Of a DNA stretch of 64,000 nt, positions 6,728 through 23,415 are shown piece after piece (position 1 is the first letter of the stretch; the number at the start of each line of letters is the position of its first letter). The notes beneath the pieces were generated by a model that saw nothing but the letters and a program-made list of their open reading frames with translations, had not been told where the DNA came from and made no database searches. A program made the translations under genes and the position numbers. The stretch lies in assembly GCF_034258515.1 (NCBI RefSeq), contig NZ_CP139438.1:992001-1056000 (forward strand). Reading direction: 5' to 3'. Origin of the DNA: Pseudarthrobacter oxydans. Its GTDB lineage: Bacteria > Actinomycetota > Actinomycetes > Actinomycetales > Micrococcaceae.

Positions 6728-6795
6728 CCTTTAACCTCTACCAACGTCGGGCCCGGGGCCGAAATCCGCCTCCGCCCCGGCGTGGTGCAAAGGCA

Positions 6796-6843
6796 CGACG
6801 GCGGCTGCCGGACTCCTGCGCGGATGTCCGGCAGCCGCCGTCG
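6796..6843 (-). terminator. strong hairpin after the glycerophosphodiesterase gene
   Basis: Perfect 18-base arms (6796-6813 and 6826-6843) around a 12-base loop. It lies 16 bases past the minus-strand stop at 6859. There is no long T run on either side, so it may be a rho-independent terminator of the U-poor kind common in high-GC bacteria. Confidence 0.65.
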
Positions 6844-6858
6844 GGCATTGTCCGGAAA

Positions 6859-7941: not shown

Positions 7942-8082
7942 GTGATGGTTCCTCCTGGATGACGGGGCCGGCGTTTCCGCCGGTGACCCGTCAACGCTAG
8001 GAGGGGCAGGTTGCGGTTCGGGTGCGGGGAATTGGAGGGGAGGTTAACGCGGGACGCCGGGCCGGCGCGCTGGGTCCACCCG

Positions 8083-8146
8083 CCATCGATTGCTCCGCAA
8101 ATGTCGTTATGAGCGGTGAAAACGGCCGGTACGGAGCAATCGATGG
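8083..8146. repeat. palindromic element A (15-bp arms, 34-nt loop)
   Basis: Arms 8083-8097 (CCATCGATTGCTCCG) and 8132-8146 are exact complements around a 34-base loop. The element starts 4 bases past the minus-strand stop at 8150, so it can serve as terminator for that MFS gene. Its layout, and parts of its loop read on the minus strand (GCCG, ACCG, CATAACG), resemble the element at 21321-21383, although the arms are unrelated. Confidence 0.6.
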
Positions 8147-8149
8147 GGG

Positions 8150-9439
8150 TTAGGGACGGGGGCGCGACGGCGGTGCACTGGTTTCCGCCACGGGAACCTC
8201 CTCCGAACGGACGGGGCGGGGCTCCAGCCACACCCGCTCCCGCGGTCCGGGCGGATACGCGTGCGTCTTCCCTGCAAGGGCGATGATCCACGCCGCCACC
8301 ACCGGCAGCGCCGCGGCGACGGGAACCAGCAGCGGTCCGCCCACCACCAGTGCCGCCGAGCCGTACAGGGCGCCCACCGTGATGCCCAGCTGGATGGTCA
8401 GCACAGTGAGGCCGTTCGCGGCTTCCTGGAACTCGCCTCCGGCCCGCAGGATGGCGGACTGGTTGTAGATGCCGATCGCGCCGAGTCCCGCACCCCAGAC
8501 CGTCATGAGGACCAGGGCGACGGGGAAGTTGCCCACCGCGAGAGGGAGGAAGAACATGGAAAGGGCGATCACCGCCGTCGTCATGAGCAGGGAACGCCGG
8601 GGCCGGGAATCCACGGTGAGGCCCGCGATCCAGATGCCCAGCAGCCCGGAGCCGCCCAGGACGGTGAGCGAGAGGCTGATGGCGTAGTCGGGGAAGCCTG
8701 CCTCGCGGATGTACGGCGCGATGTAGGTGAACAGCGCGAAATGGGCCAGGACCAGCAGCGGCCAGGCGATGGCCACCGACTTGACTCCGGGCTGGGCGAT
8801 GGCCTTGCGCAGTGAGGGACGGACGGCGTCGGAAATACGCTGGACCCGCGGCAGCAGGAAGAACGCCAGCACCGTCAGGACCAGCCCGAACCCTGCCAGC
8901 ACCAGGAACGCCGAGCGCCAGCCGAGGAACCCGCCCAGCGCCGTGCCCACGGGCGCGCCGATAGCCAGGCCCAGGCTGTTGCCGCTGAAGACAATGGCCA
9001 GGGCCTTGCCCACCTTGTCTGCCGGAACCACCCTGGTGACGAACGGGGCCATGGTGGTCCAGAGCAGGCCGTGCGCCAGGCCCCCCACCAGCCGGGCGAT
9101 CATGGCGGCGGTGAAGTCCGGCGCGAGTCCCACCATCGCATTGCTGAGCGCGAACGTCAGGACGAGCCCCACCAGCAGCGCATGGCGGGGAATCTTCCCC
9201 AGCAGCCGGGCAGCCGGGACCACCGTGACCACAATGACAGCGGCATAGGCCGCGGCCAGGTAGCCCGCAACCGGCTCGGACACGTTCAGGCCGCTGCTGA
9301 TCTGCGGCAGCAGCCCGGACGGCAGGAGCTCGGTGGTGATGGCGGTGAAGGCGATGGTGGCCAAAACCACCATCGCGGCGTACGGGAAACGGGCAGGTTC
9401 CGGCGCGGGAATGGCGGAGGACATGAGGGAAGGATCCAT
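8150..9439 (-). CDS. MFS exporter, arabinose/chloramphenicol-efflux type (DHA1)
   Basis: A 429-residue integral membrane protein with 12 predicted helices. The N-terminal half carries the DHA1 pattern TAITTELLPSGLLPQIS, then AAYAAVIVVTVVPAARLLGKIPRHALLVGL, and the antiporter motif SGNSLGLAIGAPVGTALGGFLGWRSAF in helix 5, which marks a proton-coupled exporter. This resembles sugar or drug efflux proteins of the AraJ/CmlR group. The tail after residue about 395 is charged. The start at 9439 has no clear ribosome site; ATG six codons later is an alternative. The substrate is unknown. Confidence 0.8.
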   Translation of the reverse strand: MDPSLMSSAIPAPEPARFPYAAMVVLATIAFTAITTELLPSGLLPQISSGLNVSEPVAGYLAAAYAAVIVVTVVPAARLLGKIPRHALLVGLVLTFALSNAMVGLAPDFTAAMIARLVGGLAHGLLWTTMAPFVTRVVPADKVGKALAIVFSGNSLGLAIGAPVGTALGGFLGWRSAFLVLAGFGLVLTVLAFFLLPRVQRISDAVRPSLRKAIAQPGVKSVAIAWPLLVLAHFALFTYIAPYIREAGFPDYAISLSLTVLGGSGLLGIWIAGLTVDSRPRRSLLMTTAVIALSMFFLPLAVGNFPVALVLMTVWGAGLGAIGIYNQSAILRAGGEFQEAANGLTVLTIQLGITVGALYGSAALVVGGPLLVPVAAALPVVAAWIIALAGKTHAYPPGPRERVWLEPRPVRSEEVPVAETSAPPSRPRP

Positions 9440-9674: not shown

Positions 9675-10949
9675 TCAGCGGCCTGCAGGGTCCTTGTCCT
9701 GGCTGGTCCCGGTGATGCGTGCGTCCAGCAGGCCCGCCGCAACTGCCGGAGCCAGACCGGGTGCCAGCGGAAGGCGCGGGACCACCAGGCAGTGCCACAG
9801 GTGATAGATGTCCGCCTTGCCGGACCATACGGTGGAGGTGACATTGCCGTTCTCGTCGAGCTCCTGCTTCCAGGACCCGTGCTCGTAGTCGATGAACCAG
9901 TCGCGGGCGTGGTCCCAGATCCGCTCGTACCAGTCCGCATACTTCTTCTCGCCCGTGGCGATGTAGAGGGCGGCCGCGCCCCCGATGGCCTCTGCCGGCA
10001 CCCACCGGATGCGGGTGGTGACAACGGGCTTGCCCTCCCAGTCCACGGTGTAGACAAATCCCGGGTGGCCGTCCGGCTCCCACGCGTCACGGATGGCTGC
10101 GTCGAACAGGCCCCGGGCGTCTTCCAGGAGCCAGGCCGGAACGTCCAGGCCGCGGGCTTCGAGTCCGGCGCGGAGGTGGAGGAGCAGGCGCGCCCACTCA
10201 ACCCAGTGGCCCGGCGTTCCGCCGTAGGCGCGGAACTGGCTGGCCCGGTCATCGGTGTTGTACTCCGGCATGGGGTTCCACTCCGGGTCGAAGTGTTCGA
10301 ACACCCGGTAATTGTTGTTGCGCGCGAACTTGTGGATGAGTACCTCGGCGATGTGAAGGGCCCGCTCAAGCCAGCGGTTCTCCCCGGTCACGTCAGCGAC
10401 GATCAGGTAGGCCTCGACCGAATGCATGCTGGCGTTTCCGCCCCGGTATGCCTCGGTTTCGGTGAATTCCCGGTTCCACGAGTCGAAGCACATGTTGGCC
10501 TGGTGGTCCCAGAATTTCGTGTCGGCGATCCGGAGCGCCTCGTCGAGCAGTTCGCGCGCACCGGGCCGCCCTGCGGCGACGGCACTGGCAGCGGCGAGGA
10601 GCACGAACGAATGCTGGTAGCCGGACTTCGTATCGTTTACCGGTCCGTTTTCGTTGACCTCGGCGTACCAGCCGCCGAACTCATCATCGTGCAGTGCCCC
10701 GTTGAGTGCCGCGATCCCGTGGTCCACGAGTGTTGCGGCACCCGGCCGTCCCATGAGGGCGGCGACGGAAAAACTGTGGACCATCCGGGCGGTAATCCAG
10801 AGATGGGTCGGCTTGTCGGCGAACACCTTGCCGTAGTTGTCGAGCCAGCCGAATCCTGTCGGGACCTTTGAGGCCGCGGCGAAATTGATCAGCCGGTCGG
10901 TTTCCGCCTCGAGCCAGCGTGCGTGGGCGGCACTGTTCAGCCACGTCAT
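9675..10949 (-). CDS. AGE-family isomerase, probable sulfoquinovose isomerase
   Basis: A 424-residue cytoplasmic (alpha/alpha)6-barrel protein of the N-acylglucosamine 2-epimerase / mannose isomerase family, which also includes YihS. Recognisable parts are the opening [31 protein letters not shown], the barrel histidines in [12 protein letters not shown] and [11 protein letters not shown], and [16 protein letters not shown]. The sequence alone fits aldose-ketose isomerisation. The assignment to sulfoquinovose to sulfofructose comes from its place as last gene in an operon with an SFP-type aldolase, a sugar kinase, an aldehyde dehydrogenase and a TauE exporter. The start is the ATG at 10949 after GAGAGGAA; the frame is open much further upstream but only as a shadow of the TauE gene. 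A mannose isomerase is the main alternative. Confidence 0.8.
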
Positions 10950-10993
10950 GTTGTTTCCTCTCTCTGTTACGGGTGCAAGCGAAGTTGTTGGGG

Positions 10994-11737
10994 TTACCCG
11001 ACGGCGTCGAGGACGCCTCGGATGATGGTGGCGGCCGCCCCCAGGTAGGCCAGGATGATCAGGAGTATCTGCGCGGCGCGGGCGGGGACATACTTCGAAG
11101 CGATGTCGCCCAGCACCAGCCCACCCAGGCAGGCCACACCCACGGCCACCCACATGCCCCACGGAAGCGCGGGAAATGTGGCCGGCGCGGTCAGTGCCTT
11201 GGAGATCAGCGAGAACGTCCCAATGGTGAAGAAGTACGGCTGCATGGTGGCTGCGAAGGACTTGTGCTGCCACCGGGTGGCGATGGAGTACATGCTGACC
11301 GCCGGTCCACCCACGCCGGCGGCTGTGTTCATGAACCCGCTCAGGCCGCCGGCCGTGAAGAGGTAGCGCCGCCGTGCCGGAAGGGTGACGGACTTGAGGG
11401 CCAGCAGGACAGTCAGTCCGACGGCGAGGATCACCCCGATGCCGATCTCCAGCACCGCCGGTGGAACGAGGCGGATCAGGAAGGCCGCGGGGATGATCCC
11501 GAGCAGGGCCGAGGCCGTGAGCAGAACGTACCGTTTCCAGTCAATGTCCCGCACCACGCGGAAGATGATGGCCCCCGCGGTCACGGCACCGCACATGTTC
11601 ACGAGCACCACGCCTTCCACCGGGCCCAGGAGCAGGACCAGGAAGGGTGCAGCCACCAGGGCGAAGCCCATTCCGGTGATGCGCTGCATCCCGGCTCCCA
11701 TCACCACGGCGCCCAGCACCAGCCCGGTGGTCAGCAC
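10994..11737 (-). CDS. TauE/SafE exporter, probable sulfolactate exporter
   Basis: A 247-residue membrane protein with about eight helices, arranged as two repeats ([26 protein letters not shown] and [23 protein letters not shown]), the pattern of the TauE/SafE family that moves organosulfonates and sulfite. In known sulfoglycolytic clusters a member of this family exports the C3-sulfonate end product; here it directly follows the aldehyde dehydrogenase expected to make sulfolactate. Its GTG start abuts the upstream stop (TAG then GTG), with GGAGG inside the end of that gene, so translation is probably coupled. Confidence 0.82.
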
Positions 11738-13177
11738 CTAGGGCCTCCAGGCCACGTACTGGACCTCCTCGAATTCCTCCAGGCCCAGGCTTGATCCTTC
11801 CCGGCCCAGCCCTGACTGCTTGGCGCCGCCCATGGGCGCGAAGGCCACGGACGGGAGTGGATCGTTCACGCCCACGATGCCCGCCTCGAGCTGCTCCGGA
11901 ATGTCCCAGCCGCGCCTGGGGCTGCTGCTCCAAACGTAGGCGGCCAGGCCCATCTCCGTAGCGTTGGCTTTCCTGATGGCTTCCTCCTCCGAGGAGAAGG
12001 TTACGACGCCGGCTGCCGGGCCGAACACTTCCTCCGTCACCAGGGGCGCGTCGTCCGGGACATCCGCCAGCAGGGTGGGTGCCAGGAAGGAGCCCTGGCC
12101 GGGAACATCGGTGCGTTGGGTGACGCGTCGGGCGCCGCGCTCCAGGGCATCGTCGATCAAGGCCTGGACCGCGGTGACCCGGTCGGCGTCGATCATGGGA
12201 CCGAGGTCCGGAACCTGGCCGCCGCCGTCGGGAACGCCGTGGCCGATGCTCATCGCGTCAAAGCGCGCGGCCAGCCTGGCGGCGAACTCCTCGGCGATGC
12301 TCTCCTGGACCAGGAACCGGTTGGCGGCCACGCAGGACTGCCCGGTGTTGCGGAGCCGGCCCAGGACGGCACCCTCGACGGCGGCATCCAGGTCGGCGTC
12401 CTCGAACACGATGAAGGGCGCGTTGCCGCCCAGCTCCAGCAGCGGCCGGACCACCCGTTCCGATGCGGAGGCCATGATCTGCCGGCCCACGCCCGTGGAG
12501 CCGGTGAAGCTGACTGCCCTGACCGCGGGGTGGGACATCAGGGCAGCGGTGACCTCGCGGGAGGGGCCGTGGACCAGGTTGACCACGCCGGCGGGGAACC
12601 CGGCGTCGTGCAGGACTTCGAACAGCCCGGTGGCAGCCAGCGGGGCCTTCTCGGACACCCTGCCCACCACGGTGCAGCCGGCAGCCAGCATCGCGGCGAG
12701 CTTCCGGGCCTGGATGGAGACCGGGAAGTTCCAGGGCGTGAGGCTGAGGGCCACGCCGATGGGTTTGCGGAGGCTCAGGTGGCGGCGGCCCTGCAGTTCG
12801 GGCGGGCTGACGGTGCCGGTGGCGCGGCGCGCTTCCTCGGCGAACCAGCGGAAGTACTCCACGGAGAAGTCCACTTCGCCTTGCGCTTCAGGGAGCCGTT
12901 TGCCCGCTTCAAGCGCCAGGGTGTGGGCAAGTTCGTCGCGGCGTTCGGCCAGGAGGTCGGCGGCGTTGCGGAGCAGGTCCGCCCGGTTCCGGACGGTGGT
13001 GCGCGACCAGGAACTGAAGGCCTCCGCCGCGGCGTCGGCGGCCTTGGTGGCATCCTTGCCGGTGCCCCAGGCCACCTCGCCCACGGTGCTGCCGTTGCCG
13101 GGGTCAGTCACGTCCTTGGCGGTTCCGGCGGTGTGCCAGGTGCCGTTGACGAGGTGTTGGGCTGACTTGAGGTTCAC
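11738..13177 (-). CDS. aldehyde dehydrogenase, probable sulfolactaldehyde dehydrogenase
   Basis: A 479-residue NAD(P)-dependent aldehyde dehydrogenase closest in pattern to succinate-semialdehyde dehydrogenase (GabD). The catalytic cysteine is C282 in NTGQSC, the general base E248 in LELGG, and the oxyanion asparagine N150 in TPWNFP. The C-terminal signature PMGGAKQSGLGREG is intact. In this operon the likely reaction is sulfolactaldehyde to sulfolactate, as for the GabD-type enzymes of other sulfoglycolytic pathways. One oddity is the cofactor loop, usually KP(A/S)E: here it reads G172-R173-V174-S175-E176, so the adenosine-ribose lysine is replaced by arginine. The start is GTG at 13177 with AAAGG eight bases upstream. 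Confidence 0.82.
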   Translation of the reverse strand: MNLKSAQHLVNGTWHTAGTAKDVTDPGNGSTVGEVAWGTGKDATKAADAAAEAFSSWSRTTVRNRADLLRNAADLLAERRDELAHTLALEAGKRLPEAQGEVDFSVEYFRWFAEEARRATGTVSPPELQGRRHLSLRKPIGVALSLTPWNFPVSIQARKLAAMLAAGCTVVGRVSEKAPLAATGLFEVLHDAGFPAGVVNLVHGPSREVTAALMSHPAVRAVSFTGSTGVGRQIMASASERVVRPLLELGGNAPFIVFEDADLDAAVEGAVLGRLRNTGQSCVAANRFLVQESIAEEFAARLAARFDAMSIGHGVPDGGGQVPDLGPMIDADRVTAVQALIDDALERGARRVTQRTDVPGQGSFLAPTLLADVPDDAPLVTEEVFGPAAGVVTFSSEEEAIRKANATEMGLAAYVWSSSPRRGWDIPEQLEAGIVGVNDPLPSVAFAPMGGAKQSGLGREGSSLGLEEFEEVQYVAWRP

Positions 13178-13253
13178 GAATGATGCCTTTCATTGGGCTG
13201 GAAGGGGTCCAGTGCGGCGGGGCGGGCGCGGCTGGCCGCCGTCGTCGTGACGC

Positions 13254-14069
13254 TCATCCCTTGCTGGCGCCTGCGGTGATGCCGGCCACGAAGTAGCGCT
13301 GCAGGAAGACGTAGGCCACCACCACGGGAAGGGAGGCCATGATGACGCCGGCGAACAGCAGCGGGTAGTTGGTCTGGAACTCGCCCTGGAAGCTGAGCAG
13401 TGCCAGCGGCAGGGTGCGGTTGCCGGGGGACTGGATGAACAGCAGCGGGTACAGCAGTTCGTTCCAGTGGATCACGAACAGGAAGATGGCGGCCGCGGCG
13501 ATGGACGGGGCGGACAGCGGCAGGGCGATCGAAACGTAGGTCCGCCAGGGGCCCGTGCCGTCGATCGAGGAAGCCTCATAGAGTTCCTTGGGCAGGGTCC
13601 GCATGAACCCGCCCAGGATGAAGACGGCAATGGGCAGGGTGGACACCAGGTTCGCCACCACCAGGCCGGCCAGGCTGTCCAGGAGACCCAGCCGCCCGAA
13701 CAGCACGTACAGCGGCACCATGTTCGCCTGGGCGGGGATGGCCATGCCCAGGACAAGGAAGCCGAAGATGGCCCAGGACATGAAGCCGCGGAGCCGGGAG
13801 ACGGCGTAGCCGGCCAGGCTGGCAAGGAACAGGGTGAGCGGAACGGAGATGGCGGTGACAATCACGCTGTTCCAGAACGAGGACCCGAGATCCTGGCCGC
13901 CGATCACTTCCGCGTAGTTGGCGGGGGAGAGGGACTGCGGCAGGCTGAACGGCCCGGCGAACAGTTCCTGGGTGGACTTGAAGCTGCCGAACCCCACCAC
14001 GGTCAGCGGAACGATGATGATGACCGCGTAGATCGCGAGGATTCCGCGGCGGGTTATTGACGCGAGCAT
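13254..14069 (-). CDS. sugar ABC transporter permease (MalG-like)
   Basis: A 271-residue inner-membrane permease of the CUT1 sugar family with six helices. The EAA loop that docks the ATPase is visible as YEASSIDGTGPWRTYVSIALPLSAPSI, and LVLGMAIPAQANMVPLYVLFGRLGLLDS precedes it, as in MalG proteins. It follows its partner permease by four bases and GGGGAA serves as ribosome site. Together with the two upstream genes it would import sulfoquinovose or its glycosides. No ATP-binding subunit is encoded nearby. Confidence 0.88.
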   Translation of the reverse strand: MLASITRRGILAIYAVIIIVPLTVVGFGSFKSTQELFAGPFSLPQSLSPANYAEVIGGQDLGSSFWNSVIVTAISVPLTLFLASLAGYAVSRLRGFMSWAIFGFLVLGMAIPAQANMVPLYVLFGRLGLLDSLAGLVVANLVSTLPIAVFILGGFMRTLPKELYEASSIDGTGPWRTYVSIALPLSAPSIAAAAIFLFVIHWNELLYPLLFIQSPGNRTLPLALLSFQGEFQTNYPLLFAGVIMASLPVVVAYVFLQRYFVAGITAGASKG

Positions 14070-14073
14070 GCTG

Positions 14074-15036
14074 TCATTCCCCCTTCGGGGTGAGGCGGAG
14101 CAGGCGGCGCTGCAGCCAGGTGACCAGGGCGATCATCGCCATGAAGATGATCGACTGGGCAGCGGCGTAGCCGAACTCCGAGTTGGCAAAGGTGCTGTAG
14201 ATGCGCGTGGAGAGGATGTCCAGGGACTGCTTGGGCGGGTTGCCCGCGATGCCGAGGATCAGGTCGAAGGCCTTGAACGACTGCACCGTGGTGTAGGCCA
14301 CCACAATGGACGTTGCCGGTGCCACGAACGGCCAGGTGATGGACTTGAACTGCTGCCACTTGTTGGCACCGTCCATCTCGGCCGCCTCGTAAAGTTCCCG
14401 CGGAATGGCCTGCAGGCCGGCGATGTACACCACCATCATCTGCCCGGCGTGGAACCACACCTGCGTCACGGCCACCCAGTACAGGGCCTGGGCGTCGTTG
14501 CCGAGGTAGGAGCTCTGGAGTGATTCCAGGCCCACGCCGCCCAGGACCGAGTTGGCCAGGCCGAAGTTGGGGTCGTAGATGAACTTCCAGATGAAGGCCA
14601 CCGAGACCGAGGACAGGATGGTGGGGAAGAAGAACAGCGCGCGGAGCAGGACGCTTCCCCGGGAGTTCTTCGTCAGCAGCAGCGCCAGGATCAGCGAGAA
14701 CAGCGTCTGCGCGATCACCACCAGCAGCACGAACTTGAGGTTGTTCGTCAGCGCGTTGGTGAACAGCGAGTCCTTGGTGAAAGCCCGGATGAAGTTGTCC
14801 AGGCCCACGTAGTTGAACGCTGCCGAGAAGCCGTTCCAGTCCGTGATGGCGTACTGGAAGGCCTGCAGCGTTGGCATCACCAGGAAGAAGGCGATGACGG
14901 CCACCGCGGGAAGCGGGAACAGGTACAGTGCCGGATTCACCCGCGTGGGCGAGCGGCGGCGCTTCTTCGAGGCGTCAGTTTCGGTGTGTTTGTCCGGCGC
15001 CTTCCGTGTGGGCGCCGTCCCGGGATGGATGCTCAT
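14074..15036 (-). CDS. sugar ABC transporter permease (MalF-like)
   Basis: A 320-residue CUT1 permease with a charged N-terminal extension of about 35 residues, six helices, and the EAA loop YEAAEMDGANKWQQFKSITWPFVAP. The phrase ALFFFPTILSSVSVAFIWKFIYDPNFG is typical of MalF-type sugar permeases. Its ATG overlaps the stop of the binding-protein gene by four bases (ATGA), so the two are translationally coupled. Confidence 0.88.
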   Translation of the reverse strand: MSIHPGTAPTRKAPDKHTETDASKKRRRSPTRVNPALYLFPLPAVAVIAFFLVMPTLQAFQYAITDWNGFSAAFNYVGLDNFIRAFTKDSLFTNALTNNLKFVLLVVIAQTLFSLILALLLTKNSRGSVLLRALFFFPTILSSVSVAFIWKFIYDPNFGLANSVLGGVGLESLQSSYLGNDAQALYWVAVTQVWFHAGQMMVVYIAGLQAIPRELYEAAEMDGANKWQQFKSITWPFVAPATSIVVAYTTVQSFKAFDLILGIAGNPPKQSLDILSTRIYSTFANSEFGYAAAQSIIFMAMIALVTWLQRRLLRLTPKGE

Positions 15037-16319
15037 AGCCGTTCATCAACAATCTTCTGGGCGGCCTCCGCTGCCTGCTCCGGGCTGGTGCCGGAGATGA
15101 CGGCGGTGGCGCTGGCTTCCACGGCGTTGCGGACGTCGAGGTTCTGGAACTGGAAACGCGCCGCCAGCGCCGTCATCCTGTCCAGCCACGGGCTCAGCCG
15201 CTTAAGGTCCGGGTTGGTGTAGTCCACATTGTTCACGGACACGTGCTGGGCGGTCTTGTTGGCGTAGTAGCCGGCGTTCTCCGGCTCGGAGAGGAAATCG
15301 ATCCACGCGGCCGCCGCGGCCTGGTTCTTGCTCGCAGAGTTCACGCCCAGGATGAACGTGGCGTTGTAGACGCCCTCGTACTTGCTGTTGCCGTCCGAGG
15401 TGTTGGGGAACACCAGCTCGATGGGGAACTGGGCGCCCAGGCCGCGGACGGCGGCGATGTGGTAGGAGCCGGTGGCCAGCATGGCGGCCTTCCCCTGCGA
15501 GAACAGGTTCTGGGCCGGCTCCACGGCGGTGCCCGTGGCGTTGGGCTGCAGGTAGGGGACCAGGTCCTTGTACTGGTTGAGCATCTTGATGAACCAGTCG
15601 TCAGTGACCTTCAGCTTGCCCTGCTCGATCTGGGCGCACATGTCGTCCACGGGGGCGTTGTTGGCGATCATGTTGTTGAACAGCTGGCCGCCGTTTCCAA
15701 CATCGCCGCCCGGCCAGGAGATGGGAATGACGCCGGCCGCGGCCAGTTTGTCGCACATGGCCAGGAAGGAATCCCAGTCCTTCGGGGCAAGCTCGGCGCC
15801 GGCCTTGTCGAACAGGTCAACGTTGGCCATGGGCATGGGGAACACCACCTGGTAGGGCAGGCCCAGCTGGCTCTCCCCGGACTGGCCGGCGGAGAGCAGG
15901 CCTTCCTGGTAGTTGGAGACAGCCTTGCTGCCCTTCAGGTCCGTGTAGATGCCGGCGTCGGTGAAGTTCTTGAACTGGGCGCCGCGGAAGGTGGCAAAGG
16001 CGTCACCGATGGAGCCGCCGCGGAGTTTCTGCAGGGCCTGGGCGTTGTAGTCGTTGGACGTGGAAATGTCCTGGGCAACCTCTACGCCCTCGTGCATGGC
16101 AGCGAAGCGCTTGATCAGTTCGTCGAACACCGCCTTGTCCTCGCCGCGCCAGTGGGCGAAGGACACCTTGCCGGTGACGGCTCCGGTGGAGGGCGCGGCA
16201 GGGCCGGTGGCGCCGCCGGGTGCGGTGGAACCGCCGGGCCCGGCACATGCTGCCGCCGTGGCGCCGAAGCCCAGGGCTCCGAGAACAGCGATGGCCTGCC
16301 TGCGTGAAATCTGACTCAC
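15033..16319 (-). CDS. sugar ABC substrate-binding lipoprotein, probable SQ binder
   Basis: A 428-residue extracytoplasmic binding protein. The N-terminus combines a twin-arginine-like SRRQ stretch with a lipobox (AAAC), after which a Gly/Ser/Pro-rich linker leads into the family 1 binding fold (GKVSFAHWRGEDKAVFDELIKRFAAMHEGVEV). It should capture the sugar outside the membrane and deliver it to the two permeases that follow. The ligand is inferred as sulfoquinovose or a sulfoquinovosyl glycoside from operon context alone. The start is GTG at 16319 preceded by GAGGAGA. Confidence 0.85.
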   Translation of the reverse strand: MSQISRRQAIAVLGALGFGATAAACAGPGGSTAPGGATGPAAPSTGAVTGKVSFAHWRGEDKAVFDELIKRFAAMHEGVEVAQDISTSNDYNAQALQKLRGGSIGDAFATFRGAQFKNFTDAGIYTDLKGSKAVSNYQEGLLSAGQSGESQLGLPYQVVFPMPMANVDLFDKAGAELAPKDWDSFLAMCDKLAAAGVIPISWPGGDVGNGGQLFNNMIANNAPVDDMCAQIEQGKLKVTDDWFIKMLNQYKDLVPYLQPNATGTAVEPAQNLFSQGKAAMLATGSYHIAAVRGLGAQFPIELVFPNTSDGNSKYEGVYNATFILGVNSASKNQAAAAAWIDFLSEPENAGYYANKTAQHVSVNNVDYTNPDLKRLSPWLDRMTALAARFQFQNLDVRNAVEASATAVISGTSPEQAAEAAQKIVDERL

Positions 16320-16409
16320 AATAATCTCCTCGTTGAGTGTTTGCTGTGCCTTGTTTACTTGACTGCGGAAAGGGTTGCCACGGTCACGACGCTTTGGCTC
16401 CCCGGGGGC

Positions 16410-17294
16410 TTAGGCGTTGGCCCTTTGGGCGGTGACCACGTCGTCCACCACGGCGCAGAGGCGCTGCAGCCGCCGGACGGCGTCAGTGGACAGGGATTCG
16501 ACGACGTCGGGCGCGCCGATGCAGGACGCCCAGACAGCGCGTCCGGAGAGGAAGCCGCTGGCACCTTCCAGGCAGGCCCACCGGACCGCCTCCGGGAAGA
16601 CGTCCTCGGGGACACCGGAGGAGAGCACCACCCAGGGGCCGTCGATGGCATTGGTCAGCTCGGCGCAGGCGGCCCGGACCTCTGCTTCGGACGCCTGGCC
16701 GTGGAACGGGACTTCGGCCTTGTACAGGTCAGCGCCCAGGCTGCCAAGCTCCTTGGCGGCGGCGAGGATGCCGGCGTTCCAGTCAAAGTCTCCGCCGGCC
16801 AGCGGCTTGCGGGAGACGGGCTCGATAATGCTGATGAGGCCGGCGGACTGGCACCGTTCCACGAATTCGCGGACCATTTCCACCCGGCCTTCGGCGGGCT
16901 CGTCCGGGCGGTAGAGGACCAGGAGCTTGAGGGCCTTCACGCCCAGGGCCTTGTACTTGTGCGGGTCCACCAGGCGGTCAATGGTTACCTCGCCCACCAG
17001 TTCGCCGTGTGCGGATTCGAAGTGGTCCGCCGAGGCGATCAGCCCGCAGCCGGGGTCCACCACGTTGTCCTCGATGGCCTGGTCGAGGGCGAACTGCCGG
17101 TCGATCAGGACGCCAGAGGCGTAGGGGGTGAGGATTTTGGCGGCCTGGAGCTTGAAGTCCTGGAGGTCCTGGTCCGTGACGGGCTGGTCCGTGTGCTCGG
17201 CGAACATGTTGCGCATGGCTTCGCGCTGGTCCACGGCGAGCATCGCGAAGGCGCCTGACGGGCGCTGGAGGGGTGTGAGGTCTGTGGGGCTCAT
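16410..17294 (-). CDS. class I aldolase, LacD/YihT type; probable SFP aldolase
   Basis: A 294-residue aldolase of the tagatose-1,6-bisphosphate (LacD) family, the same family as YihT, which cleaves 6-deoxy-6-sulfofructose 1-phosphate to DHAP and sulfolactaldehyde. The Schiff-base lysine is K192 in GADLYKAEVPF, and MLAVDQREAMRNMF (residues 18-31), LKLLVLYRPDE (123-132) and SIIEPVSRKP (155-164) form the rest of the active site. Its place between a PfkB kinase and an ABC system with an AGE isomerase favours the sulfosugar substrate over tagatose bisphosphate. The ribosome site GAAAGAAG is adequate. Confidence 0.85.
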   Translation of the reverse strand: MSPTDLTPLQRPSGAFAMLAVDQREAMRNMFAEHTDQPVTDQDLQDFKLQAAKILTPYASGVLIDRQFALDQAIEDNVVDPGCGLIASADHFESAHGELVGEVTIDRLVDPHKYKALGVKALKLLVLYRPDEPAEGRVEMVREFVERCQSAGLISIIEPVSRKPLAGGDFDWNAGILAAAKELGSLGADLYKAEVPFHGQASEAEVRAACAELTNAIDGPWVVLSSGVPEDVFPEAVRWACLEGASGFLSGRAVWASCIGAPDVVESLSTDAVRRLQRLCAVVDDVVTAQRANA

Positions 17295-17322
17295 GGGCTG
17301 CTTCTTTCAGCTGGGCGGTGGG

Positions 17323-18237
17323 TTAGGCGGGCAGGTTGGTGGCGAGGACAGGAGTGATGGTCTGGTGGGGGATGGCGGAGCGGCCGTCCAGTCCCTGGCA
17401 GGACGCGGAGGCGGTGCGGCCGGCAAAGGCTGCGGCCTCCACCAGCGGCAGCCCGGCGGCGACGGCGGCCAGGAGGGCGCCGTGGTAGACGTCGCCGGCG
17501 CCCAGGGTGGAGACGATGTTGGCCGGGGTGGCGGGCACGTGGACCGGGTCGCCGTTGCCGTCCTTGACCCAGGCCCCCTCCGAGCCGGCGGTGGCCACGA
17601 CGGCGGAGGCGCCGTCGTCGACCGCTCTTTGAAGGAGCGCCGCGGCGGGAAGCTGCTCGCCGTACTCTGCGCGGAGCCGTTCGATGGTGGGGACGTACAG
17701 TGCGACGCCCTTGGGATTGAAGGACGGGATGGGGTTGCCGGCATCCACGCTGATCCTTAGGGTGCCAAGGTCCCCGCGTGTGGCGGAGGCGACGGCGTTC
17801 CAGCCCAGGTGGTCCACGTGGACCCAGGCTGCCGACTGCAGCAGTTCATGGAAGCGGCTGCCGGCCGGAAAGCTGACCGGCGGCACCGGACGGGTGACGA
17901 TGGCCCGGCTTTCGGAAGCCTTGCTGACCACGATCACGCTGGCCCCTGTTTTGACGTCCGGGTCGCGGATGACGGCGGAGGTGTCAACGCCTTCTGCCTG
18001 CAGGCCGGCGATGATGCGGTCGCCTTCCTCGTCGGTGCCGAGGACACCGGCGAAGGCTGTTGCAGCTCCGGCGCGGGCTGCTGCCACGGCTGCGGTGGCG
18101 GCCGGCCCGCCGCCCGCGGTCGCGAAATCCGCGGCGACGGTGCGGCTGTCCGCAGCAGGGTAGTCCTCCACCAAAGCGATGGAGTCAAGTGTGGCGCACC
18201 CTACGAAGAGCAGGGTTCCAGTTGACGGTTGGGGCAC
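17323..18237 (-). CDS. PfkB-family sugar kinase, probable sulfofructose kinase
   Basis: A 304-residue ribokinase-fold kinase that would phosphorylate sulfofructose at O1 with ATP. The first signature is FVGCATLDSIALVEDYPAAD, followed by AGGGPAATAAVAAARAG, and the catalytic base lies in STLGAGDVYHGAL. It is the first gene of the minus-strand operon. The start is GTG at 18237, chosen because ACGAGGTGG precedes it; a GTG at 18282 lies inside the promoter and is excluded. Transcription probably starts from TTGTTA-17-TATATT just upstream, which overlaps a DeoR-type operator. Confidence 0.83.
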   Translation of the reverse strand: MPQPSTGTLLFVGCATLDSIALVEDYPAADSRTVAADFATAGGGPAATAAVAAARAGAATAFAGVLGTDEEGDRIIAGLQAEGVDTSAVIRDPDVKTGASVIVVSKASESRAIVTRPVPPVSFPAGSRFHELLQSAAWVHVDHLGWNAVASATRGDLGTLRISVDAGNPIPSFNPKGVALYVPTIERLRAEYGEQLPAAALLQRAVDDGASAVVATAGSEGAWVKDGNGDPVHVPATPANIVSTLGAGDVYHGALLAAVAAGLPLVEAAAFAGRTASASCQGLDGRSAIPHQTITPVLATNLPA

Positions 18238-18273
18238 GTTCCACCTCGTTGTAGTTCCGGCTGGTACTGAAGA

Positions 18274-19522
<1,249 letters not shown>

Positions 19523-19530
19523 GTAAGTTG

Positions 19531-19548
19531 GTGTTGGAATTGCAACAC
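19531..19548 (+). promoter_or_regulatory. DeoR operator (site 2) upstream of the regulator
   Basis: The perfect inverted repeat GTGTTGGAATTGCAACAC has 6-base arms around 6 bases and lies 45 bases before the regulator start. Its inner 16 bases match site 1 at 18289-18304 in 14 positions, which argues that one protein binds both and that the regulator controls itself. Confidence 0.7.
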
Positions 19549-19592
19549 TCCGCCGAGCCTGGTGTCCGGCGCATGGTCAGAAAGAAGGGGTT

Positions 19593-20375
19593 ATGAGCAT
19601 TGCACGTGGGGATGCGCCGCTGACGCCCCGCCAGCGCACCATCCTGGACGAGCTGGGCCGGCGCGGGTTCATTTCCACCACCGATCTGGCCGAGACCTTC
19701 GCGGTCTCGGACATGACGGTGCGCCGGGACACGCGGGTATTGTCCAAACTGGGCCTGGTCCGGGTGGTGCACGGCGGCGTGAGCGCCATCCATGGGCAGG
19801 GCCAGAACGCGGACTTCGCTGCCCGGGTCCGTGAGGATGCCGAAGCCAAGCTTCGCGTGGCCCGCGCCTGCGTATCCATGATCGGGGAGCGGGACGCGAT
19901 CATCCTGGACGCCGGCACCACCACGTACCAGATTGCGCAGGAGCTGCCCGCCGCGTTCAAGGGGACAATCATTACCCACTCGGCCCCGGCCATCCAGCGG
20001 TGCCTGCAGCTGACCTCGGCACGGACCATCTGCCTCGGCGGGGAACTGCTGCTGGACAGCCAGGCGTTCAACGGCCCCATGACCGTCAGCGCTGCGGCCG
20101 GGCTGCGCGCCAGGACCGCGTTCATTGGCGTCAGCGGAATCCACGACGAGGCGTTTTACATTGAGCGTGACGTGGAACGCGCCACTAAGATCGCACTCAT
20201 GAACTCTGCGGAACAGGTGGTAGTGGTGGCAACACACCAGAAGATGCTGCGGTACGCGCTGGCCCGGCTGGCGGCCTTCGACGCCGCGGATGTCCTGGTG
20301 ACGGACGCGCCCCCGCCGCGGGAAATCGAATCGGCGCTGCGTGCGGCGAACGTCAAGCTCGTGGTGGCGGCATGA
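19593..20375 (+). CDS. DeoR/GlpR-family transcriptional regulator
   Basis: A 260-residue regulator with an N-terminal winged helix (RQRTILDELGRRGFISTTDLAETFAVSDMTVRRD, roughly residues 9-45) and a C-terminal sugar-phosphate-sensing domain typical of the family (ILDAGTTTYQIAQELP, then ICLGGELLLDSQAFNGP). DeoR members usually repress and are released by a phosphorylated pathway intermediate, here perhaps sulfofructose 1-phosphate; that is inference. The start has AAGAAGGGG upstream. Two matching palindromes flank the preceding gene, one of them in this gene's own promoter. Its last four bases overlap the start of the next gene (ATGA). Confidence 0.88.
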   Translation: MSIARGDAPLTPRQRTILDELGRRGFISTTDLAETFAVSDMTVRRDTRVLSKLGLVRVVHGGVSAIHGQGQNADFAARVREDAEAKLRVARACVSMIGERDAIILDAGTTTYQIAQELPAAFKGTIITHSAPAIQRCLQLTSARTICLGGELLLDSQAFNGPMTVSAAAGLRARTAFIGVSGIHDEAFYIERDVERATKIALMNSAEQVVVVATHQKMLRYALARLAAFDAADVLVTDAPPPREIESALRAANVKLVVAA

Positions 20376-21304
20376 CCGCGCCGCTGCGGATTGCCCTGCC
20401 CGACCAGAAACTGGTGGAGGCGCTGGAGCCGGCTTCCGGCGTCGAATTCTTCGTATGGGACTTTTCCGGCCCTGCCCCCGCCGGGCGTTTGGACATCGTG
20501 GTGCCGCCGTACATGCGCGGGCCGGAGGTGCTGGCTGCGCTGGAGTCCGTGGAGATCGGCCTGGTCCAGAGCCAGTCCATCGGGTACGACGGCGTGGCGG
20601 ACGTCCTGCCCGCCGGTTGCCTTTTCGCCAACGCGGCAGGCGTGCATGAAACGTCGACGGCGGAACTTGCCCTGGGCATGATGATTGCCAGCCAGCGCGG
20701 CATGGCCGACTTTGCACGGAACCAGGCCACCGGGACCTGGGACAACAGGCAGCGGCCCAGCCTGGCTGACCGCCGGGTGCTGCTGGTGGGCTACGGGGGA
20801 GTGGGCAAGGCCATCGAGGCCCGGCTCCTGCCCTTCGAAACGCAGGTGACCCGGATGGCGAGCCGTGAACGCGAGGACGCCGGCGGAAAGATCTTCGGGA
20901 TCGACTCACTGTATGAGCAGCTGCCCCTGCACGACATCGTGGTGGTCAGCGTGCCCCTCAGCGAGCAGACAAAGCAGCTGGTGGATGCAAAGTTCCTGGC
21001 AGCAATGCCTGACGGGGCGCTGCTGGTGAACGTGGCCCGCGGACCGGTGGCGGACACGGACGCGCTGCTGGCGGAGACGTCCTCGGGCCGTTTGCGTGCC
21101 GCGCTGGACGTGACGGACCCCGAGCCGCTGCCCGCTGACCATCCCCTCTGGACCTCTCCCGGCGTGCTGATTACCCCGCATGTCGGCGGGGCCAGCTCGG
21201 CGATGTTCCCGCGGATGGTCCGGCTGATCAAGCAGCAGATCGGGCTGATGCTGGAGGGCAAGGAGCCCGTCAACGTGGTGCTGGGCGGCCCGTCCCGGAG
21301 CTAG
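20372..21304 (+). CDS. D-2-hydroxyacid dehydrogenase family protein
   Basis: A 310-residue NAD(P)-dependent oxidoreductase of the D-isomer 2-hydroxyacid dehydrogenase family. The nucleotide motif LLVGYGGVGKAIEARL lies near residue 140. The catalytic arginine is in LVNVARGPVADTDAL, the acid in DVTDPEPLPADHPL and the histidine in VLITPHVGG. It overlaps the DeoR gene by four bases, so it is cotranscribed with the regulator. It is not a standard sulfoglycolytic step; possible roles are interconversion of sulfolactate with sulfopyruvate or detoxification of a keto by-product. Glyoxylate/hydroxypyruvate reductase activity is the generic alternative. Confidence 0.8.
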   Translation: MTAPLRIALPDQKLVEALEPASGVEFFVWDFSGPAPAGRLDIVVPPYMRGPEVLAALESVEIGLVQSQSIGYDGVADVLPAGCLFANAAGVHETSTAELALGMMIASQRGMADFARNQATGTWDNRQRPSLADRRVLLVGYGGVGKAIEARLLPFETQVTRMASREREDAGGKIFGIDSLYEQLPLHDIVVVSVPLSEQTKQLVDAKFLAAMPDGALLVNVARGPVADTDALLAETSSGRLRAALDVTDPEPLPADHPLWTSPGVLITPHVGGASSAMFPRMVRLIKQQIGLMLEGKEPVNVVLGGPSRS

Positions 21305-21418: not shown

Positions 21419-22282
21419 CTATCTCCGGAATTCGATGCGGACCGAGTTGTCGTCCGGCAGGACGATGACCGTTCCGTCCCGCGGCGCCCAGCCGTCGTGC
21501 AGGAAGAAGAAACGTCCGCCGCTCAGCACCAGCAGCCGGAGCCCGTCGTACCGGTAGAGCGGAGCTTCGCCGTTGCCCACCTTCACTTCGGTGACCGCGC
21601 CGGAGCCGATGCCCAGCGGCTTGGGCGAATACACCTCCGCCCGGGGCATGAACTGGACGCCTTGCTCGTAGTCCACGGCCAGCCGCCGGCCCAGCGCCTG
21701 CGCATAGTCGGCCGTGCCCCAGAAAAGCAGCAGCGTCACGATGCTCAGGATCAGCGTGGTTTCCACCGCCCGCTGCTCGGCGCTCAGGGCCGGCACCCGG
21801 CTGCTCCGGCCCAGGCGGCGGAGGTGGACGCACCAGGTGGCCACCAGTACGCCCAGGGCCATCAGATACGGCGAGAAGAGCGCCGTCCGGGTGCGATCAA
21901 CCACCGCCAGCACCAGGCTGACTCCGACCACAAGCCCACTGACCAGGGCGCCGATGCCTGCGGCCCGGAGGATGACGGCGCGTCCGCGGTCCTCCTCGAT
22001 CCGGCGGCGCAGCAAGCGGTCAAGCGCCAGCCAGGCAACGCTGGCGGCAAGGATGCAGACCAGCGGCAGGAAGAGCGCGTTGATGCTGATGAGCAGGTAG
22101 TCCTGCACTGTGTACCCGAAGAGGCTGACGTTGAGGCCCATGTACGCCGCCTGTGCATCGGCGCGTGCCCAGCCGAAGTAGAACAGCAGCGCCGTGGCAA
22201 CCGTAACCGGCGGGCCGATGGCGGAAATAACTCCGACGGCGCGGGACCATGAGGAACGCCCGTCTCCGTCGCCCTCCGTCAC
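21419..22282 (-). CDS. membrane protein of unknown function
   Basis: A 287-residue protein I do not recognise. It has about five hydrophobic segments: VISAIGPPVTVATALLFYFGW, LLISINALFLPLVCILAASVAWLAL, IGALVSGLVVGVSLVLAVV, SPYLMALGVLVATWCVHL and TLILSIVTLLLFWGTA. The C-terminal region of about 85 residues has few hydrophobic stretches, with RYDGLRLLVLSGGRFFFLHDGW and a final EFRR. The start is GTG at 22282, because it overlaps the upstream lipoprotein stop by four bases (GTGA); this coupling suggests that the two products work together at the membrane. Confidence 0.7.
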   Translation of the reverse strand: MTEGDGDGRSSWSRAVGVISAIGPPVTVATALLFYFGWARADAQAAYMGLNVSLFGYTVQDYLLISINALFLPLVCILAASVAWLALDRLLRRRIEEDRGRAVILRAAGIGALVSGLVVGVSLVLAVVDRTRTALFSPYLMALGVLVATWCVHLRRLGRSSRVPALSAEQRAVETTLILSIVTLLLFWGTADYAQALGRRLAVDYEQGVQFMPRAEVYSPKPLGIGSGAVTEVKVGNGEAPLYRYDGLRLLVLSGGRFFFLHDGWAPRDGTVIVLPDDNSVRIEFRR

Positions 22283-23415
22283 GGTGCGGCGCCCGGCGCC
22301 GGGCACGTACTCTGGTCCGCGGCGTACTCGAAGGAAGCGGATCCCTGGACCTGCCAGTCGGCGTCGGCAATACTCACTTCGGCGGTGGTGGGTTGCCCTT
22401 CAGCCAGTGGCGGTGCCAGGAAGTAGAACTCAAACGGGAAGTTGGTGTCCGTGAAGCTCTGGCGCTGGCTGACCAGTGCCGTGGTGGTGCCAACGTTGAC
22501 TGAACGGACGGTGCCGGCGGGGAGGCCGGTGACGCTTCCGTCCAGGATGAGCACGTCCCCTGCGCAGACCTGGAAGGGCTGGCTGTCGCCCGCATCATCC
22601 TGCACGGCTTTGAGTTTCGGAACGCAGGCGGTCCCGGGGCGGGGGGCAAGCTCAATGATGGCATCCGGCTTTTGTATCCGGACGGCAGCGATATTGCTGA
22701 GGATCTGCTGCGCGGCTTCAGACCAGCAGTCAGGCGGGGACGTCGACAGGGCAGGAACGCCCGCCTCCCAGGCAGCCTGGTCACCCTTCAGGCCGAAGCA
22801 AAGCGTCCGTGCTGCCTCTTCCACGGTATTGAAGGGTTCGGAGAAGCCGGGAACCGACTCACAATTCAAGTCCTTCAAGCGCACATACCAAATCGGATCC
22901 CCCCTGCCGACCGGGCCTATCGGCAGCCAGTCGAGCACCACGGTCTCGGGGGCTGGCGGCTGGGCAGCGGCGGGCGGACCGGGCGGCGGCGCGGGCGGCT
23001 GGTCGGGAGCCTGCGGAGCGGGTGCCGGTGGCTGGGCAGGGGCGGGTGGACCGGGTGGCTGCGCCGGACCGGGCCCCTGCGGCTGGCGTGGCACGGGCGG
23101 CGGCTGTTGAGCCGGTGCCGGGTCCTGGCCTTGCGGCAGGCTTTGCCCGCTGTCAGGACCGGAGCCTGAAGCATCAGAGCTTGAATTATCAGAGCCTGAA
23201 CCGCCGGATCCGTCCGGTCCCCGGCTGGCGCCGCCGCCGGCCGTTTCTTCAGCGGGCCGATCCGACGGCGATGCATCCTGCCTGCTTTCGCTGGACGAGG
23301 CGCTGCTGGCTGCCGGGCCACTCCTGTCCTCTGTCGACATGCAGGCGGACAGAAGCAGCGACAGGACCAGCGCCCAGACAAAGGCGATAGGGTGGCGGCG
23401 GCTGTAGGAGTGCAT
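22279..23415 (-). CDS. proline-rich lipoprotein of unknown function
   Basis: A 378-residue predicted lipoprotein. The signal ends in a lipobox at LLSAC25. Residues of about 30-95 are Ser/Gly-rich and about 98-155 are a Pro/Ala/Gln repeat-like linker that could span the cell wall. A globular C-terminal part of about 220 residues follows, with several cysteines (LNCESVP, RTLCFGL, PDCWSEA, TACVPKL, FQVCAGD, STCPAPG), probably disulfide-bonded. I do not recognise the domain. It is coupled to the membrane protein that follows. Confidence 0.7.
   Translation of the reverse strand: MHSYSRRHPIAFVWALVLSLLLSACMSTEDRSGPAASSASSSESRQDASPSDRPAEETAGGGASRGPDGSGGSGSDNSSSDASGSGPDSGQSLPQGQDPAPAQQPPPVPRQPQGPGPAQPPGPPAPAQPPAPAPQAPDQPPAPPPGPPAAAQPPAPETVVLDWLPIGPVGRGDPIWYVRLKDLNCESVPGFSEPFNTVEEAARTLCFGLKGDQAAWEAGVPALSTSPPDCWSEAAQQILSNIAAVRIQKPDAIIELAPRPGTACVPKLKAVQDDAGDSQPFQVCAGDVLILDGSVTGLPAGTVRSVNVGTTTALVSQRQSFTDTNFPFEFYFLAPPLAEGQPTTAEVSIADADWQVQGSASFEYAADQSTCPAPGAAP

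What the first reader, a model, noticed from the sequence alone, without database searches (positions are those of the whole stretch)
9675..21304. Probable sulfoquinovose (sulfo-EMP2) catabolic regulon with divergent arms
Every expected step has a candidate. Seen in the sequence: a sugar ABC importer, a Gfo/Idh/MocA protein, an AGE isomerase, a PfkB kinase, an aldolase with the LacD/YihT Schiff-base lysine (K192), a GabD-like dehydrogenase and a TauE/SafE exporter, all in two divergent units. Established: sulfoglycolytic EMP clusters of Arthrobacter-type actinobacteria carry this gene set and export sulfolactate. Inferred: this organism grows on sulfoquinovose or its glycosides. The gene order and the extra hydroxyacid dehydrogenase may differ from described clusters.
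Basis: partly seen in the sequence, partly recalled or inferred. Interest (0 to 1): 0.85.

Follow-up and report, generated by a model that had tools for sequence, protein, structure and literature searches.

The report
Sulfoquinovose-degrading gene cassette in soil actinobacterium
A bacterium of the Arthrobacter group carries a known type of gene set for eating sulfoquinovose, the sulfur-bearing sugar of plant membranes; the work here corrects its label, proposes its on/off switch sites, and shows that one neighbouring gene probably does not belong to it and that several relatives have lost the set.

Summary
The genes are real. The minus unit encodes a YihV-like kinase, YihT-like aldolase, ABC binding protein and two permeases, GabD-like dehydrogenase, TauE permease and YihS-type isomerase; the plus unit a Gfo/Idh/MocA protein, a DeoR regulator and a hydroxyacid dehydrogenase. 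The Gfo/Idh/MocA protein matches crystallised NAD+-dependent sulfoquinovosidases SqgA (GH188) over its length and keeps their ligand residues; isomerase and aldolase match YihS and YihT strongly. "Sulfo-EMP2" is the wrong label (SqvD/SqiK/SqiA). This is the sulfolactate-forming sulfo-EMP variant already published for Arthrobacter and Pseudarthrobacter. Added here: a palindrome TGTTG-N6-CAACA between kinase and sqgA (50 of 50 loci) and before deoR (48 of 50), a probable DeoR operator. The hydroxyacid dehydrogenase looks like a resident neighbour: 44 of 82 genomes with it lack sqgA, 13 of 51 sqgA carriers lack it. The tail of deoR remains at 8 of 13 cassette-free sites tested and one genome holds a half-deleted cassette, so the set was lost there. 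A second phosphohexomutase, in 18 of 198 genus genomes, all sqgA carriers, has the palindrome upstream in 16 of 18; the window's strain lacks it. No growth, enzyme or binding test was available for this strain.

The parts
9675..10949 (-). AGE-superfamily isomerase, YihS type: sulfoquinovose to sulfofructose
   Evidence: phmmer to YihS-type entries 2rgk, 2afa, 2zbl and 7ag4, 589-599 bits over nearly the whole length; ATG start with upstream GAGAGGAAAC in the sequence printed; NCBIfam D-mannose isomerase 524 bits, below its 600 cut-off
10994..11737 (-). TauE/SafE (TSUP) permease, probable sulfolactate exporter
   Evidence: Pfam PF01925 E 5e-19; no NCBIfam hit; abuts the dehydrogenase gene; a TauE permease is described in strain AK04
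11738..13177 (-). GabD-like aldehyde dehydrogenase, probable sulfolactaldehyde dehydrogenase
   Evidence: PF00171; closest solved chain is a succinate-semialdehyde dehydrogenase (3jz4), 409 bits; Asn150, Arg158, Glu248, Arg276 and Cys282 keep the spacing of RlGabD Asn163, Arg171, Glu261, Arg289 and Cys295
13254..14069 (-). ABC sugar permease (GlcU/MalG-like)
   Evidence: PF00528; NCBIfam hits all below cut-off
14074..15036 (-). ABC sugar permease (UgpA/MalF-like)
   Evidence: PF00528; overlaps the binding-protein gene by 4 nt
15033..16319 (-). ABC solute-binding protein, probable sulfoquinovose or SQ-glycerol binder
   Evidence: PF01547; only weak matches to solved sugar-binding proteins, best 47 bits
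16410..17294 (-). class I aldolase, YihT type: sulfofructose-1-phosphate to DHAP plus sulfolactaldehyde
   Evidence: 285 bits to YihT entries 7ag1/1to3/7ag7 against 58 bits to the best tagatose-bisphosphate aldolase; Lys192
17323..18237 (-). PfkB-family kinase, YihV-like, probable sulfofructose kinase
   Evidence: best PDB match is YihV 7ag6, 106 bits, next 76; GTG 18237 follows GAGGTGG; the longer ORF to 18282 overlaps a promoter-like -10, a scan result at chance level
18289..18304 (.). proposed operator O1, TGTTGGAATAACAACA, between the divergent kinase and sqgA genes
   Evidence: at most 2 mismatches to the consensus in 50 of 50 related loci, shuffles mean about 6, lowest 3; the only exact match in the genome
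18380..19522 (+). SqgA, NAD+-dependent sulfoquinovosidase (GH188) by sequence
   Evidence: 760 bits to 8qc3 and 8qc2 over about 379 residues; Lys107, Tyr136, Arg166, Leu170, Lys172, Glu189, His193 and His321 all present
19532..19547 (.). proposed operator O2, TGTTGGAATTGCAACA, in front of deoR
   Evidence: at most 3 mismatches in 48 of 50 related loci; exact palindrome arms in the own genome
19593..20375 (+). DeoR-family regulator of the cassette
   Evidence: PF08220 plus PF00455; no NCBIfam model over cut-off; found in 49 of 50 fetched carriers, not in L197
20372..21304 (+). D-2-hydroxyacid dehydrogenase: resident flanking gene overlapping the deoR stop; probably not a pathway gene
   Evidence: PF02826; 44 of 82 genomes with a full-length copy lack sqgA and 13 of 51 sqgA carriers lack it at 75% identity or more; flanked by the same resident genes on both sides in 13 of 20 cassette-free loci

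Best explanation
A sulfo-EMP sulfoquinovose cassette of the published Arthrobacter AK04/Pseudarthrobacter type. Sulfoquinovose or its glycerol glycoside enters by the ABC importer; SqgA, with bound NAD+, frees sulfoquinovose from glycosides; the YihS-type isomerase makes sulfofructose; the PfkB kinase makes sulfofructose-1-phosphate; the YihT-type aldolase splits it into DHAP, which is kept, and sulfolactaldehyde; the GabD-like enzyme oxidises this to sulfolactate, which TauE probably exports. A DeoR-family repressor probably binds two palindromes (TGTTG-N6-CAACA) and so holds both arms off until a sulfosugar is present. The hydroxyacid dehydrogenase behind deoR is a resident gene. Shown by sequence: gene identities, SqgA ligand residues, conserved palindromes, presence/absence pattern. 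Inferred: substrate, transport directions, repression, inducer.
For: SqgA matches the crystallised SQases 8qc3 and 8qc2 with about 760 bits, and eight of the nine residues named in PMC10755693 fall on the same letters. YihS-type isomerase 589-599 bits, YihT-type aldolase 285 bits against 58 for tagatose aldolases, YihV the best hit of the kinase. SqgA at 81% or more in 51 of 198 genus genomes; of the 50 others fetched, 34 have the same ten-gene order and 9 a rearranged one. Strain AK04, reported with the same kinds of genes, TauE included, grows on SQ and excretes sulfolactate (PMC8873060). No GH31 domain and no PF04295 (SuyB-like, recalled) domain found in the genome, as expected if SqgA replaces YihQ and sulfolactate is excreted. 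Palindrome O1 in 50 of 50 and O2 in 48 of 50 loci.
Against: No growth, enzyme or binding data for this strain. The kinase is only distantly YihV-like (106 bits); the YihV sulfonate residues Asn109 and Arg138, recalled from memory and not read here, align with Thr and Gly. The dehydrogenase's two arginines align with arginines in the succinate-semialdehyde dehydrogenase 3jz4, so they do not separate the substrates. The binding protein has no close solved relative. No ABC ATPase in the cassette. The palindrome consensus was drawn from the same loci that were then counted; by itself it is no commoner in the genome than its reversed control (6 against 7, up to 2 mismatches: 9 and 9 against 18 and 25).
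Confidence: 0.92

Rival explanations
1. True sulfo-EMP2 cluster: SqvD isomerase, SqiK PfkA-type kinase, SqiA class II aldolase.
For: Same intermediates and end product; PMC10599462 passages mention several sulfo-EMP2 members in Actinobacteria.
Against: Cluster enzymes are of the AGE, PfkB and DeoC/LacD families; no fucose-isomerase C-terminal domain (SqvD type) found in the genome.
Confidence: 0.01
2. The hydroxyacid dehydrogenase is a pathway enzyme, oxidising (S)-sulfolactate to sulfopyruvate like SlcC, so that sulfolactate is used further.
For: It sits directly behind deoR, with overlapping stop and start, in 35 of 50 fetched carriers; SlcC is, from recall, of this superfamily; a D-3-phosphoglycerate dehydrogenase gene lies in the Tyr-variant GH188 clusters of PMC11465081. 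Presence of the two genes is associated across the genus (odds ratio 6.8).
Against: 44 of 82 genomes with it lack sqgA, and 13 of 51 sqgA carriers lack it at 75% identity or more, though 4 of those 13 have a 66-68% copy; it stays where the cassette is gone; no PF04295 domain in the genome and no enzyme over the Xsc cut-off (where none of the 14 control genomes passed it either).
Confidence: 0.07
3. The enzymes serve another sugar (mannose, tagatose or inositol derivatives) and the sulfosugar reading is a coincidence of families.
For: AGE, PfkB, LacD and Gfo/Idh/MocA families are broad; NCBIfam D-mannose isomerase gives 524 bits to the isomerase.
Against: Isomerase, aldolase, kinase and glycosidase each have a sulfosugar enzyme as best or near-best solved match; SqgA sulfonate site complete; same gene kinds as in the published SQ-grown strains.
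Confidence: 0.03

Closest known systems
Modified sulfo-EMP cluster of Arthrobacter sp. AK04 and syntenic Arthrobacter/Pseudarthrobacter clusters (PMC8873060)
   Same: YihS, YihV and YihT homologues, GabD-type SLA dehydrogenase, ABC importer, IolG-like protein, TauE; no GH31 SQase
   Different: No clear difference in gene set from the text read; exact order and identities against AK04 were not compared because its sequence was not retrieved
SqgA, GH188 NAD+-dependent sulfoquinovosidase (PMC10755693; PDB 8qc2, 8qc3)
   Same: Full-length match and the named ligand residues (8 of 9 by number), with the canonical Leu170 rather than the Tyr variant of PMC11465081
   Different: Scattered sequence differences only
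E. coli yih sulfo-EMP cluster
   Same: Isomerase, kinase and class I aldolase families; DeoR-family regulator
   Different: Sulfolactaldehyde is oxidised, not reduced; SqgA replaces YihQ; ABC importer and TauE; no YihR counterpart among the cassette genes
Sulfo-EMP2 of Bacillus urumqiensis (SqvD/SqiK/SqiA)
   Same: Same intermediates
   Different: Enzymes of other families at three steps

Membership tests
Sulfo-EMP (actinobacterial, sulfolactate-forming) | YihS-type (AGE) sulfoquinovose isomerase | tested here: met
   589-599 bits to YihS-type entries; activity not testable
Sulfo-EMP (actinobacterial, sulfolactate-forming) | PfkB-family sulfofructose kinase (YihV) | tested here: inconclusive
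   Family met and YihV is the best solved match (106 bits), but recalled sulfonate residues do not align
Sulfo-EMP (actinobacterial, sulfolactate-forming) | Class I sulfofructose-1-phosphate aldolase (YihT) | tested here: met
   285 bits, Lys192
Sulfo-EMP (actinobacterial, sulfolactate-forming) | Sulfolactaldehyde dehydrogenase in place of the reductase | tested here: inconclusive
   GabD-like gene in the operon with the Arg/Arg, Cys, Glu and Asn spacing of RlGabD; the arginines also occur in a succinate-semialdehyde dehydrogenase, so substrate is not settled
Sulfo-EMP (actinobacterial, sulfolactate-forming) | Growth on sulfoquinovose with sulfolactate release | not testable with these tools
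   needs culture work
Sulfo-EMP2 | SqvD (FucI-type) isomerase | tested here: not met
   no PF02952 match in the genome; the same search matched 3 of 14 control genomes
Sulfo-EMP2 | SqiK PfkA-type kinase and SqiA class II aldolase in the cluster | tested here: not met
   cluster kinase is PF00294, aldolase PF01791
GH188 SQase (SqgA) | Arg166, Leu170 amide, Lys172 sulfonate site and Lys107, Tyr136, Glu189, His193, His321 | tested here: met
   8 of 9 residues tested match; the paper's Glu163 falls on Val with a Glu next to it, and the aligned crystal sequence reads the same
GH188 SQase (SqgA) | NAD+-dependent hydrolysis of sulfoquinovosides | not testable with these tools
   needs enzyme assay

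The most novel reading that the evidence does not exclude
In this genus sulfoglycolysis has its own DeoR-run regulon defined by TGTTG-N6-CAACA, and in about a third of carriers (18 of 51; not in the window's strain) the regulon includes a dedicated second phosphohexomutase. It would be needed because growth on the three carbons of DHAP forces hexose-phosphate synthesis while sulfosugars, which resemble hexose 6-phosphates, would interfere with or be substrates of the housekeeping mutase; the paralogue's changes near two ligand loops would be the adaptation.
Probability: 0.3. Interest if true: 0.6.

Novelty: new member of a known kind. Interest (0 to 1): 0.38.

Why it matters
[quoted passage not shown] The cassette itself is known, so the gain is in detail: the correct pathway name, a testable operator, removal of a probable passenger gene from the pathway, evidence that the ability is repeatedly lost within one genus with a tell-tale scar, and a candidate accessory enzyme in related cassettes that the texts searched here do not mention.

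Tried and rejected
Insertion of the cassette into a resident promoter region was my first reading of the synteny. It was dropped as the sole story, because the deoR 3' end lies at several cassette-free sites while DeoR proteins of the nine rearranged cassettes, in genomes without the dehydrogenase, end in much the same native way, which points to loss; an idea that DeoR had taken its last codons from a resident leader peptide was dropped for the same reason. Not every cassette-free site carries a recognisable scar: the deoR tail beat all 20 shuffles in 8 of 13 tested loci and failed in 5 (L200, L201, L205, L208, L216); the operator/deoR-start block beat the shuffles in only 1 of 13 (L214). The 13 are 13 of the 20 cassette-free loci fetched; L206 and the six loci with other surroundings were not tested. 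Some other DeoR tails differ (L012, L170, L194). Gain by transfer is therefore not excluded for some lineages.

Plasmid search: 48 records match, none over 80% of the cluster; the ten listed cover 1-3%. Repeat search: only short partial repeats. Terminator and promoter scans were at chance level (6 against 5.9 and 1 against 0.8). YihV and YihT sulfonate-binding residues could not be checked in print because the source paper is not held; a further search (listing only) showed no paper holding the residue names asked for. Protein homologue search, structure prediction and fold search were not used.
Full report
WHAT IS THERE. The window is bases 992001-1056000 of a 4.44-Mb single-contig genome. 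ORF and domain scans give ten cassette genes plus one neighbour. Reading away from a divergent region at about 18240-18380, the minus unit is kinase, aldolase, binding protein, two permeases, GabD-like dehydrogenase, TauE and AGE isomerase, with gaps of -4 to 90 nt (its isomerase end was set at 10943, while the sequence it prints puts the ATG at 10949). The plus unit is a Gfo/Idh/MocA gene, a DeoR gene and a D-2-hydroxyacid dehydrogenase whose start overlaps the deoR stop. The kinase ORF of 17323-18282 probably starts at GTG 18237, which follows GAGGTGG; the longer reading overlaps a promoter-like -10 from a scan that was at chance level.

WHAT THE ENZYMES ARE. The Gfo/Idh/MocA protein matches the two crystallised sulfoquinovosidases 8qc3 and 8qc2 with about 760 bits over about 379 residues; the next solved relative has 370 and the rest have 80 or less. 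Of nine residues named in PMC10755693 (parts 1 and 2 of 4 read), eight are identical here: Lys107, Tyr136, Arg166, Leu170, Lys172, Glu189, His193 and His321. The ninth, printed as Glu163, falls on Val with Glu one residue on, and the crystal sequence reads the same at that place, so it looks like a numbering matter. It has Leu170, not the Tyr variant of PMC11465081 (part 1 of 2 read). The isomerase matches YihS-type entries with 589-599 bits, the aldolase YihT with 285 bits against 58 for the best tagatose aldolase, and the kinase YihV with 106 bits against 76 for the next match. The dehydrogenase is nearest to the succinate-semialdehyde dehydrogenase 3jz4 and keeps, by spacing, the residues proposed for RlGabD in PMC10599462 (passages seen); 3jz4 shares the arginines, so they are compatible but not decisive. 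As that paper says of Arthrobacter, it lacks the second cysteine.

NAME. PMC9594981 and PMC12890257 (passages seen) define sulfo-EMP2 by SqvD, SqiK and SqiA. The cluster enzymes are of other families, and no fucose-isomerase C-terminal domain was found in the genome. This is sulfo-EMP with sulfolactaldehyde dehydrogenase, as described for Arthrobacter AK01 and AK04 in PMC8873060 (parts 1-3 of 4 read), where AK04 has TauE and some Pseudarthrobacter clusters are said to be identical to that of AK04. In the window's genome no GH31 domain and no PF04295 domain (its link to SuyB is recalled) was found, and nothing passed the Xsc cut-off (no control genome passed it either). This fits SqgA as the SQase and sulfolactate as end product.

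DISTRIBUTION. SqgA at 81% identity or more is in 51 of 198 genus genomes; the next hits are at about 30%. The other 50 were fetched. In 34 of 50 the ten genes stand in the same order as here, in 9 the isomerase lies to the right of deoR, and in 7 the isomerase was not counted: two of these stretches are under 8 kb, one (L196) holds a decayed cassette (below) and four lack it within the stretch. So there are at least two architectures.

THE HYDROXYACID DEHYDROGENASE. A full-length copy at 75% identity or more is in 82 of 198 genomes (3 more are partial), of which 38 carry SqgA and 44 do not; 13 of 51 SqgA carriers lack it, 4 of them having a 66-68% copy (association odds ratio 6.8, P 5e-8, not corrected for kinship). 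In 35 of 50 fetched carriers it follows deoR, with overlapping stop and start in all 35. Of the 44 cassette-free genomes 20 were fetched: in 13 of 20 the gene lies between a left-hand neighbour known from the window (MFS or MscS gene) and the right-hand MFS gene, in 1 only the right neighbour was seen, and in 6 the surroundings differ. In 9 the left MFS gene and the dehydrogenase are neighbours 213-282 bp apart. So it reads as a resident gene. That does not exclude co-transcription with deoR today.

LOSS. Thirteen of the 20 cassette-free sites were compared with filled ones. Directly in front of the dehydrogenase, the last bases of deoR were found above all 20 shuffles in 8 of 13: L215 27 of 28 bases, L203 19 of 19, L202 18 of 18, L204 17 of 18, and shorter or gapped matches in L199, L207, L211 and L214; 5 of 13 showed none. 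DeoR proteins of the nine rearranged cassettes, whose genomes lack the dehydrogenase, end V[KR]LIVA plus one residue in 9 of 9, so such a tail is native to deoR and the sites are best read as deletion scars. Locus L196 shows a deletion caught midway: isomerase codons from about 233 on abut sqgA from codon 35, with the genes that should lie between them gone, while deoR and the dehydrogenase remain (an assembly error is not excluded). A tree of the dehydrogenase (36 filled, 20 empty) needs 12 changes of state, at least 8 on well-supported branches; it does not by itself tell gain from loss.

OPERATOR. The region between kinase and sqgA is strongly conserved. TGTTGGAAWARCAACA fits with at most 2 mismatches in 50 of 50 loci there (O1: 49 fetched carriers plus the named locus L012; L196 has no kinase) and with at most 3 in 48 of 50 before deoR (O2: 49 fetched carriers plus L012; L197 has no deoR); the two exceptions are L191 and L194. 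Shuffles of the same stretches averaged about 6 to 7, lowest 3. In most O2 copies the arms stay and the middle varies, giving TGTTG-N6-CAACA; in ten O1 copies (nine of them from the rearranged cassettes) the left arm is changed. No match to the looser pattern TGTTNGAANANCAACA was found in the 20 cassette-free loci. In the window's genome exact arms occur at O1, O2 and four copies of one other sequence; the total of 6 places is not above the reversed control of 7, so the case rests on position and conservation. PMC10991401 (passages seen) reports actinobacterial CsqR homologues beside yihV and yihT genes; words beginning operator, palindrom or consensus do not occur in it. Searches for such an operator in print (listings, which show 20 of 167 and 10 of 531 papers, and in-paper finds) showed none; supplements were not available.

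A SECOND PHOSPHOHEXOMUTASE. Near some cassettes lies a PGM/PMM gene (Pfam on one of them). Genus-wide, the 73-100% band of hits to it holds 18 genomes, all of them SqgA carriers with the gene inside the fetched cassette stretch (chance about 2e-12 ignoring kinship); most genomes have another copy at about 69-71%, taken here as housekeeping. The palindrome, at most one mismatch, lies within 160 nt upstream in 16 of 18 of these and in 0 of 22 housekeeping copies tested. Twenty-four positions separate the two groups (one is the first residue), among them F341Y and W347Y by the GEHSAH loop and P432A in the RxSNTE loop (the loop roles are recalled). The best match in the window's genome is the housekeeping type, 70%. 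The string 'mutase' does not occur in the main texts of PMC8873060 and PMC10755693. One search listed 20 of 514 papers; a few hold both words in other settings (for example the glycolysis review PMC12965863), none has a title linking the two, and none was read for this.

VERDICT. A sound finding with a wrong sub-label, of a published kind. The regulon details, the passenger gene, the losses and the second mutase are additions of moderate interest.

Noticed in passing
L192:1606-2997 (-), L184, L186-L190, L195 and others: A second PGM/PMM phosphohexomutase paralogue in 18 of 198 genus genomes, all SqgA carriers, with the cassette palindrome upstream in 16 of 18.
   Followed up: partly
L199-L218, upstream of the hydroxyacid dehydrogenase: Several cassette-free sites keep the last bases of deoR in a short ORF coupled to the dehydrogenase, most clearly L215.
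   Followed up: partly
L196, about 6000-7600: Apparent half-deleted cassette: the 3' part of the isomerase gene abuts sqgA from codon 35, the genes between are missing.
   Followed up: partly
L160 and L194, about 7090-8575: About 1.5 kb of extra DNA between the aldolase and binding-protein genes compared with the window.
   Followed up: no
window 11738-13177: The dehydrogenase has Arg-Val-Ser-Glu where 3jz4 has Lys-Pro-Ala-Ser; from recall, Glu at this place favours NAD+ over NADP+.
   Followed up: no
window 13254-16319: The importer has no ATPase gene in the cassette; a shared ATPase (MsiK type, recalled) is probably used.
   Followed up: no
G000:C1:825660, 1703802, 4207550, 4217879: Four copies of TGTTGTAACCACAACA elsewhere in the genome, perhaps parts of an unrelated repeat.
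   Followed up: no
window 22279-23415 (-): Lipoprotein-like ORF with a long proline-rich linker and no Pfam hit.
   Followed up: no
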